Of a stretch of DNA of 64,000 nucleotides, positions 3,194 through 4,546 are shown piece after piece (the stretch's first letter is position 1; each line of letters opens with the position of its first letter). A model generated the notes under the pieces. That model ran no database searches and was not told the DNA's origin. It saw only the letters and a program-made list of their open reading frames with translations. This DNA comes from Hydra vulgaris. Lineage: Eukaryota > Cnidaria > Hydrozoa > Anthoathecata > Hydridae. The stretch lies in assembly GCF_038396675.1 (NCBI RefSeq), contig NC_088934.1, forward strand, positions 48,104,001 through 48,168,000, read 5' to 3'. The translations under genes and the position numbers were made by a program.

Positions 3194-3308
3194 AACCCTT
3201 AGATGTTGTCCGAAAGTTTTTTCGATATTTTGTTGAAAAAAAGTAAAAATTAAAATGCAAGACCGGAATTTTTTTTTTTTAATAATGATAGACTGCCTGC
3301 CCCAACCA

Positions 3309-3500
3309 AACCCTCAGTCGATGTAGCAGCACTCCCTTGCGGGTCAGGCTATTTGTCAGTCGATGTAGCAGCACTCCCTTGCGAGTCAGGCTATTTGTCA
3401 GTCGATGTAGCAGCACTCCCTTGCGAGTCAGGCTATTTGTCAGTCGATGTAGCAGCACTCCCTTGCGAGTCAGGCTATAAGATAGTCGATGTAGCAACAC
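3309..3500. repeat. 42-bp tandem repeats, left arm
   Basis: Five copies of the CAGTCGATGTAGCAGCACTC unit. The outermost complete copy carries GCGGGTCAGG where the others have GCGAGTCAGG, and the mirror copy in the right arm shares that variant. The innermost copy has CAACACTCCG. Confidence 0.93.
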
Positions 3501-4084
3501 TCCGCGCATGATTTACAGTAAAAAAAATAAAAATAAAAACATTTTATTAAAAAAAATAAAAATAAAAACATTGTTTATATTGTTAAAAACATTCAAAATG
3601 TTATAAAAACATTCAGAATGTCTTTAAAAACATTCTGGTCAATTAAATTTGCGTTTTTGTGGTTTTTTTAAAAAACGATTAATTTGTAATTAAATTAATG
3701 GTTTTTACTTTCGTCCAACACGGAAATGTTGGACGAAAGTCAAAAGTAATTAAAAGTGACGTATGTGTTGGCGTAAGAATCACTTTTTTCCTTCCGCTCT
3801 TCCTAAAGCCAACAAACTATAGAACTATATATATATATGTATATATATAGTTCTATAGTTTGTTGGCTTTAGGAAGAGCGGAAGGAAAAAAGTGATTCTT
3901 ACGCCAACACATACGTCACTTTTAATTACTTTTGACTTTCGTCCAACATTTCCGTGTTGGACGAAAGTAAAAACCATTAATTTAATTACAAATTAATCGT
4001 TTTTTAAAAAAACCACAAAAACGCAAATTTAATTGACCAGAATGTTTTTAAAAACATTCTGAATGTTTTTATAACATTTTGAAT

Positions 4085-4222
4085 GTTTTTAATAATATAA
4101 ACAATGTTTTTATTTTTATTTTTTTTAATAATATAAACAATGTTTTTATTTTTATTTTTTTTAATAAAATGTTTTTATTTTTATTTTTTTTAATAAAATG
4201 TTTTTATTTTTATTTTTTTTAC
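4085..4222. repeat. expanded A/T block, right arm of palindrome
   Basis: Four copies of a roughly 32-36-bp unit ending in TTTTTATTTTTATTTTTTTT, where the mirror position in the left arm (3520-3590) has only two. This is the main length difference between the arms. Confidence 0.85.
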
Positions 4223-4239
4223 TGTAAATCATGCGCGGA

Positions 4240-4432
4240 GTGTTGCTACATCGACTATCTTATAGCCTGACTCGCAAGGGAGTGCTGCTACATCGACTGA
4301 CAAATAGCCTGACTCGCAAGGGAGTGCTGCTACATCGACTGACAAATAGCCTGACTCGCAAGGGAGTGCTGCTACATCGACTGACAAATAGCCTGACCCG
4401 CAAGGGAGTGCTGCTACATCGACTGAGGGTTT
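4240..4432. repeat. 42-bp tandem repeats, right arm
   Basis: Mirror image of the left-arm array with the same copy number (five) and the same order of variants, including the CTGACCCGCAAGGG copy near 4393. Arm-to-arm homogenisation or a recent origin explains this. Confidence 0.93.
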
Positions 4433-4546
4433 GGTTGGGGCAGGCAGTCTATCATTATTAAAAAAAAAAAATTCCGGTCTTGCATTTTAATTTTTACTTT
4501 TTGTCAACAAAATATCGAAAAAACTTTCGGACAACATCTAAGGGTT

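What the first reader, a model, noticed from the sequence alone, without database searches (positions are those of the whole stretch)
3194..4546. 1.35-kb nearly perfect palindrome with mirrored 42-bp repeat arrays
Both arms carry five 42-bp repeats with the same order of rare variants (the GCGGG copy occupies mirror positions), yet a neighbouring A/T block has two copies on one side and four on the other. Either the element is very young or the arms are kept alike by gene conversion while simple repeats slip. Nested inside each arm is another hairpin, giving three levels of inverted structure. It is fully embedded in TA microsatellite.
Basis: partly seen in the sequence, partly recalled or inferred. 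Interest (0 to 1): 0.75.

Follow-up and report, generated by a model that had tools for sequence, protein, structure and literature searches.

The report
Two back-to-back transposons in TA repeats
The striking palindrome is not one mirrored element but, most likely, two copies of a small, abundant jumping DNA piece that landed tail-to-tail in the same TA repeat, so its symmetry is a by-product of where this family inserts.

Summary
The palindrome is real but is not the mobile unit. In the window's own genome (G000, 911.5 Mb; probably Hydra vulgaris AEP) each arm is a complete, asymmetric, non-coding element of about 661 bp that occurs alone, head-to-tail, head-to-head and, here, tail-to-tail, in TA repeats. 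The mirrored GCGGG repeat is the family's usual order (29 of 33 copies, 4 not readable). The arms share no substitution of their own: left has 2, right has 1, relative to dispersed copy L009. Two separate insertions explain this; gene conversion is not needed. Two empty-site comparisons show insertion into TA tracts that were already there: (TA)6 versus (TA)2-unit-(TA)7, and (TA)25-47 in 11 of 12 fetched paralogs versus (TA)22-unit-(TA)17. No terminal inverted repeats were found. Central repeats, a decayed subterminal inverted repeat and a 3' stem-loop recall Helentron derivatives (HINE/DINE-1); the TA-linked arrays recall plant SaTar/MuTAnT Mutator-like elements. The mobilising enzyme was not identified: the Mutator search did not complete, and no partner sharing the ends was found.

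The parts
3194..3825 (+). Unit copy 1 (left arm), 632 bp, complete non-autonomous element
   Evidence: Aligns to positions 1-661 of the family consensus, 95.3% with gaps; 2/632 substitutions from L009 and L003_928
3826..3849 (.). 24-bp TA-rich junction between the two 3' ends (centre of the palindrome)
   Evidence: Gap of 24 bp between units, 0.96 in TA hexamers
3850..4546 (-). Unit copy 2 (right arm), 697 bp, complete non-autonomous element in opposite orientation
   Evidence: Aligns to 1-661 of the consensus, 94.7% with gaps; 1/661 substitutions from L009 and L003_928
3094..3194 (.). (TA)n tract on the left; its last base overlaps the start of the unit
   Evidence: TRF, 50.5 copies of AT
4548..4730 (.). 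(TA)n tract on the right, interrupted
   Evidence: TRF, 91.5 copies of TA, 96% matches
3203..3217 (+). 5' subterminal motif ATGTTGTCCGAAAGT of copy 1
4523..4537 (-). 5' subterminal motif of copy 2
3314..3503 (+). Central 42-bp repeats of copy 1, 4.5 copies
   Evidence: TRF
4237..4426 (-). Central 42-bp repeats of copy 2, 4.5 copies
   Evidence: TRF
3519..3572 (+). A/T block of copy 1, two units
   Evidence: Direct repeat D9; unit types
4103..4221 (-). A/T block of copy 2, four units
   Evidence: TRF period 29, 3.9 copies
3707..3740 (+). Internal hairpin of copy 1, both arms resembling the 5' motif
   Evidence: Matches with 3 and 2 mismatches to the 15-base motif
3935..3968 (-). Internal hairpin of copy 2
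3752..3787 (+). 3' stem-loop AAAAGTGA..TCACTTTT of copy 1
   Evidence: Read; same element 38 bp from the 3' end in the consensus
3888..3923 (-). 3' stem-loop of copy 2
   Evidence: Read
2921..3093 (.). Neighbouring segment between two TA tracts; parts of it recur beside units elsewhere (linked module, not part of the unit)
   Evidence: Similar flanks next to units at L017, L029, L038 and partly L039

Best explanation
The palindrome is two separately inserted, near-identical copies of a ~661-bp non-autonomous DNA transposon, joined tail to tail through one (TA)n microsatellite. Shown here: one arm is the repeated unit; it is dispersed and young; in 18 of 20 loci found by the 3' end the 5' end is also present; units sit in TA repeats, alone or in chains of either orientation; two loci have empty counterparts whose TA tract pre-existed. 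Inferred: an enzyme recognises two unlike ends (5' subterminal motif; 3' hairpin and stem-loop) and inserts the unit into TA repeats. Repeated landing in one tract gives direct arrays or, when orientations oppose, palindromes; slippage then alters TA tracts and the A/T block. Most likely mobiliser, held weakly: a Helentron-type rolling-circle element (about 0.4), then a Mutator-like transposase (about 0.25), recombination through TA repeats (about 0.15), or something else (about 0.2). The confidence given refers to the two-insertion explanation, not to the enzyme.
For: Copies of the single unit: 73 distinct hits in the fetched loci, 56 full-length and young. Neighbouring units within 350 bp in 14 pairs: 9 head-to-tail, 4 head-to-head, 1 tail-to-tail (some pairs include partial or old copies). 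Arms share no private substitution: left 2, right 1, shared 0 against L009. First 42-bp unit is the GCGG type in 29 of 33 copies, 4 unreadable. Empty sites: L018 against 3 of 3 fetched paralogs, (TA)6 empty, (TA)2 + (TA)7 occupied; L064 against 11 of 12 fetched paralogs, (TA)25-47 empty, (TA)22 + (TA)17 occupied.
Against: The substitution evidence is thin (3 sites) in a star-like family, and the tree is mostly unresolved. No empty or one-armed version of this very locus was seen: its right-flank search did not complete. The window is the only tail-to-tail pair in the sample, where random orientation would give about 3 or 4 of 14. The sample is the top-ranked places, on C1, C2 and C15 only.
Confidence: 0.88

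Rival explanations
1. Same two-insertion history, but the unit is a Mutator-like (MULE) derivative of the plant SaTar/MuTAnT kind, inserted into TA repeats by a MULE transposase.
For: SaTar and MuTAnT elements are MULEs that sit in TA repeats and SaTars form non-nested arrays (PMC5907723 parts 1-4 of 6; PMC4486113 parts 1-2 of 4). MULE-MuDR and MULE-NOF are reported from Hydra (PMC12220107, passages).
Against: No terminal inverted repeat: best match between the two 40-bp ends is not terminal and 9.5% of shuffles reach it. Net gain at L018 is 6 bp of TA, not 8-11, though slippage blurs this. No partner sought successfully: the PF10551 search was unanswered.
Confidence: 0.25
2. The arms arose in one step: a single inserted copy was duplicated in inverted form by fold-back or template switching at the TA repeat, then diverged.
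For: The centre is TA, which can fold on itself; both arms end in TA; only 3 substitutions separate the arms.
Against: The arms share no private substitution, their A/T blocks depart from the consensus in opposite directions, and other junctions in the sample are head-to-tail or head-to-head, which this does not explain.
Confidence: 0.08
3. No dedicated transposase: TA-bearing circles or broken ends recombine with other TA repeats, copying whatever lies between two TA tracts.
For: Junctions are TA-rich on both sides in the sampled full copies (46 of 56 by a strict 30-bp test); a circle-plus-recombination model was proposed for SaTars, as speculation (PMC5907723); a different segment (2921-3093) is also TA-linked.
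Against: One family with constant ends dominates; L018 entered a tract of only (TA)6, a poor substrate for homology; subterminal motif and stem-loop look like recognition sequences.
Confidence: 0.15
4. The whole palindrome is one foldback-type transposon.
For: Long inverted arms containing tandem repeats, as in Tetris and other foldback elements (PMC4079207, passages).
Against: 1 such pair among 14 neighbouring pairs, while 56 full single units were found, and single units have their own empty sites.
Confidence: 0.02
5. Gene conversion keeps the arms of an old palindrome alike.
For: Arms are 99.5% identical by substitution.
Against: Dispersed copies are as close or closer, so the likeness is just youth; conversion would tend to share private changes, and none is shared.
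Confidence: 0.02

Closest known systems
SaTar elements of guayule and rice, including Micron (non-autonomous MULEs; PMC5907723)
   Same: Short non-coding elements in (TA)n, linked into arrays through the microsatellite
   Different: SaTars are mostly defined by terminal inverted repeats, and several families have 10-bp duplications outside microsatellites; neither was found here. Described from plants.
MuTAnT of Medicago (PMC4486113)
   Same: Targets TA microsatellites; TA tracts longer at occupied than at empty sites
   Different: Each MuTAnT is itself a foldback with long inverted repeats and has a known mudrA-like partner; here the inverted structure is two units
HINE / DINE-1, non-autonomous Helentrons (PMC4067079, passages)
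   Same: Asymmetric, central tandem repeats, 12-15 bp subterminal inverted repeats, 3' palindrome, no classical inverted ends, clusters
   Different: Reported preference is T-rich target with no target change; here TA repeats and +6 bp at one site; subterminal repeat exact only in old copies; no partner sharing the ends found
Helitron-like elements in (GAAA)n of Lepidoptera (only a reference-list entry seen)
   Same: Animal, microsatellite-associated
   Different: Different microsatellite; paper not read
Tetris and other foldback transposons (PMC4079207, passages)
   Same: Long inverted arms with tandem repeats
   Different: The inverted pair is not the mobile unit here

Membership tests
SaTar / MuTAnT (TA-targeted MULE) | Sits in TA microsatellite | tested here: met
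   46 of 56 full young copies by a strict 30-bp test on both sides; most of the other 10 have interrupted TA tracts or run into a neighbouring unit, L018 and L042 only a short TA stretch on the 3' side
SaTar / MuTAnT (TA-targeted MULE) | Non-nested arrays joined by the microsatellite | tested here: inconclusive
   14 close pairs, most with TA gaps; no systematic test for one unit interrupting another
SaTar / MuTAnT (TA-targeted MULE) | Terminal inverted repeats | tested here: not met
   Ends of the consensus, score 9, reached by 9.5% of 3000 shuffles and not terminal
SaTar / MuTAnT (TA-targeted MULE) | 8-11 bp target duplication | tested here: inconclusive
   +6 bp of TA at L018; microsatellite slippage
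SaTar / MuTAnT (TA-targeted MULE) | mudrA-like partner with the same ends | not tested
   PF10551 search unanswered
Helentron derivative (HINE/DINE-1) | Subterminal inverted repeats of 12-15 bp | tested here: inconclusive
   Exact 12 bp in 2 of 5 representatives (L022 11/2000, L046 3/2000 shuffles); 7 bp, no better than shuffles, in young consensus, L015 and L007. The 15-base motif recurs with 2 mismatches in the arm (3 of 2000 shuffles) but a general local alignment of the first 50 bp was unremarkable (183 of 1000)
Helentron derivative (HINE/DINE-1) | Stem-loop near the 3' end | tested here: met
   Present in 5 of 5 representatives, stem imperfect in L022 and L046; 38 bp from the 3' end in the consensus, slightly beyond the reported 8-35
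Helentron derivative (HINE/DINE-1) | Insertion in T-rich DNA with no target change | tested here: inconclusive
   TA targets; +6 bp of TA at L018; L064 total 39 TA lies within the 25-47 range of empty paralogs
Helentron derivative (HINE/DINE-1) | Autonomous partner with Rep/helicase and the same ends | tested here: inconclusive
   Helitron_like_N common in G000 (150 scored of 857) but ends not compared; nearest scored ones 199 kb (C1) and 179 kb (C2) from sampled units
Foldback transposon | The mobile unit itself has long inverted arms | tested here: not met
   The unit is one arm
SINE-like retroposon | Frequent 5' truncation | tested here: not met
   18 of 20 loci found by the 3' end reach the 5' end; one meets an assembly gap, one starts at position 7

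The most novel reading that the evidence does not exclude
Hydra TA microsatellites act as landing hubs for an element with two unlike ends and no inverted repeats, which spreads by microsatellite-directed insertion (rolling-circle, or recombination of TA-bearing circles): an animal counterpart of plant SaTar arrays that makes kilobase palindromes as a by-product.
Probability: 0.3. Interest if true: 0.6.

Novelty: new variant of a known kind. Interest (0 to 1): 0.38.

Why it matters
It shows a route to a large, almost perfect palindrome that needs neither a foldback transposon nor gene conversion: repeated landing in one TA tract. A young family with readable empty sites makes microsatellite targeting testable in an animal. 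The searches made listed no paper on TA-linked arrays of this kind in an animal; that is what those listings showed, in an open-licence library, not proof of absence.

Tried and rejected
Rfam scan: microRNA models below their gathering scores on the central hairpin, plus weak TA and one pestivirus-model match, also below gathering. Exact-pattern scans of viral contigs and genome contigs: no match. Two old copies (L007, L015) lie inside a separate repeat with CCCAGTGGG ends, not an autonomous partner. L010's odd relative is an old unit joined to other sequence that looks LINE-like by eye. Empty sites among 316 kb already held: none found. L042's paralog lacks the unit and the minisatellite around it, so gives no junction. 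tRNA scan of the consensus: none. piggyBac (CCC..GGG ends, recalled) dropped: unlike ends, no TTAA. SINE, foldback and gene-conversion readings rejected as told above.

Dropped before counts: alignments under 60 bp, hits within 30 bp of a locus end, overlapping duplicates; 10 of 46 loci, five covered by larger loci (L002, L005, L006, L008, L021), L004 a duplicate of L003, and four flank-only (L030-L033); 3 old copies of 36 left out of the consensus and distances.

Full report
Observation. The palindrome is present as described: left arm 3194-3825, centre 3826-3849, right arm 3850-4546. The arms differ by 3 substitutions in 632 aligned sites and by 65 bp in the A/T block. Each holds 4.5 copies of a 42-bp repeat and a nested hairpin. 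The whole lies in (TA)n, and its centre is TA too.

What the unit is. A 100-bp query from the left terminus against the window's own genome (G000, 911,502,276 bases, 15 contigs) met 716 first-look candidates; 40 were scored, giving 41 matches at 95-100% identity. The genome fits Hydra vulgaris AEP by size: 596 Mb of TEs is given as 65.3% of that genome (PMC12220107, passages). The tool names no organism, so this is an inference. A query from the other end met 925 candidates; 40 were scored, all at 100%. Candidate numbers are not copy counts. In the fetched loci one arm is a complete element that often stands alone. After removing duplicates there are 73 hits, 56 of them full-length and young; 661 bp is the commonest length (18 of 56). 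46 of the 56 have both 30-bp flanks made of TA steps at 80% or more. Most of the other 10 have interrupted TA tracts or run into a neighbouring unit; L018 and L042 have only a short TA stretch on the 3' side. Of 20 loci found by the 3' end, 18 reach the 5' end, one meets an assembly gap and one starts at position 7, so the unit is not a 5'-truncated retroposon. The sample is biased to near-identical copies on C1, C2 and C15.

How the palindrome arose. Fourteen neighbouring pairs lie within 350 bp: 9 head-to-tail, 4 head-to-head and 1 tail-to-tail, the window itself. Some include partial or old copies. The outermost repeat of the array is the GCGG type in 29 of 33 young copies (4 not readable) and the GCGA type in 3 of 3 old ones, so the mirrored variant is shared ancestry. 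Relative to dispersed copy L009 the left arm has 2 private substitutions, the right arm 1, and none is shared. The tree does not group the arms, but it is nearly a star, with 2 of 29 inner branches well supported. The consensus A/T block is A-A-B; the left arm has A-B and the right A-A-B-B. Two insertions plus slippage explain this. The evidence is strong for the unit and moderate for the order of events, since only three sites separate the arms and no empty version of this locus was seen.

Target sites. The flank of L018 matches 36 places (36 of 36 candidates scored), four of them at 96-100%, one of which is L018 itself. The other three were fetched. They read TATTTC(TA)6TG, while the occupied site reads TATTTC(TA)2, unit, G(TA)7TG: clean, with three TA more. 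The flank of L064 matched 40 scored of 55 candidates. I fetched 12: 11 are empty with (TA)25-47, one is rearranged, and the occupied copy has (TA)22 and (TA)17. So in both cases the TA tract was there beforehand, and six TA suffice. A third site (L042) gave no readable junction.

Anatomy and mechanism. The ends are unlike and no terminal inverted repeat was found. Two old copies carry a 12-bp subterminal inverted repeat, GTTGTCAGAAAG (11 and 3 of 2000 shuffles did as well); in the young consensus and in L007 and L015 the exact match is only 7 bp, no better than shuffles. A stem-loop AAAAGTGA..TCACTTTT lies 38 bp from the 3' end; it is present in 5 of 5 representatives, imperfect in two. With the central repeats this is the layout reported for Helentron derivatives (PMC4067079, passages). 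Helitron Rep domains are common in G000 (150 scored of 857; open frames of 1308 aa at three places), but their ends were not compared, and the nearest scored ones are 199 kb (C1) and 179 kb (C2) from sampled units. Behaviour matches the plant SaTar and MuTAnT elements, which are Mutator-like, target TA repeats and, for SaTars, chain through them (PMC5907723 parts 1-4 of 6; PMC4486113 parts 1-2 of 4). These have terminal inverted repeats and this unit does not, so it works like them but is not filed as one. The MULE domain search did not complete.

Neighbourhood. The 173-bp segment at 2921-3093, between two TA tracts, has relatives beside units at L017, L029, L038 and partly L039. The window therefore shows a short chain of TA-linked modules rather than one symmetric element.

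Verdict. The symmetry is a by-product of insertion preference. The finding is largely explained. What remains of interest is an abundant animal element with unlike ends that lands repeatedly in TA repeats, and an enzyme still unidentified.

Noticed in passing
window 28923-29314: Two overlapping self-complementary stretches (251 and 186 bp, 88-89%) in a self-comparison.
   Followed up: no
window 8324-9003 and 12330-13009: A 685-bp direct repeat at 95.5% identity, overlapping the end of an open frame at 7586-8524 that reads like a reverse transcriptase by eye; Pfam gave no hit.
   Followed up: partly
window 56728-57882 (-): Single-exon open frame with a haem peroxidase domain, PF00141, E 1e-24; unusual in animals, by recall.
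   Followed up: partly
window 17403-18686 (+); 36817-37206 and 41400-41873 (+): A rhodopsin-type receptor (PF00001) and pieces of a voltage-gated channel (BTB_2 and Ion_trans domains).
   Followed up: partly
window 27342-27716 (-): Fragment of a DDE_3 transposase (PF13358, E 2.8e-10).
   Followed up: no
L015/L030/L031 and L007/L029/L032: A dispersed repeat with CCCAGTGGGCACA..TGTGTCCACTGGG ends that carries an old, diverged unit and has received young units in its TA tract.
   Followed up: partly
56 full young units, base before AACCC: The base outside the terminus is G in 39, C in 16 and T in 1 (the window's left arm); it may belong to the element and mark subfamilies.
   Followed up: no
window 48076-48687: Long microsatellite giving a spurious repeated 'YIHT' open frame.
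   Followed up: no
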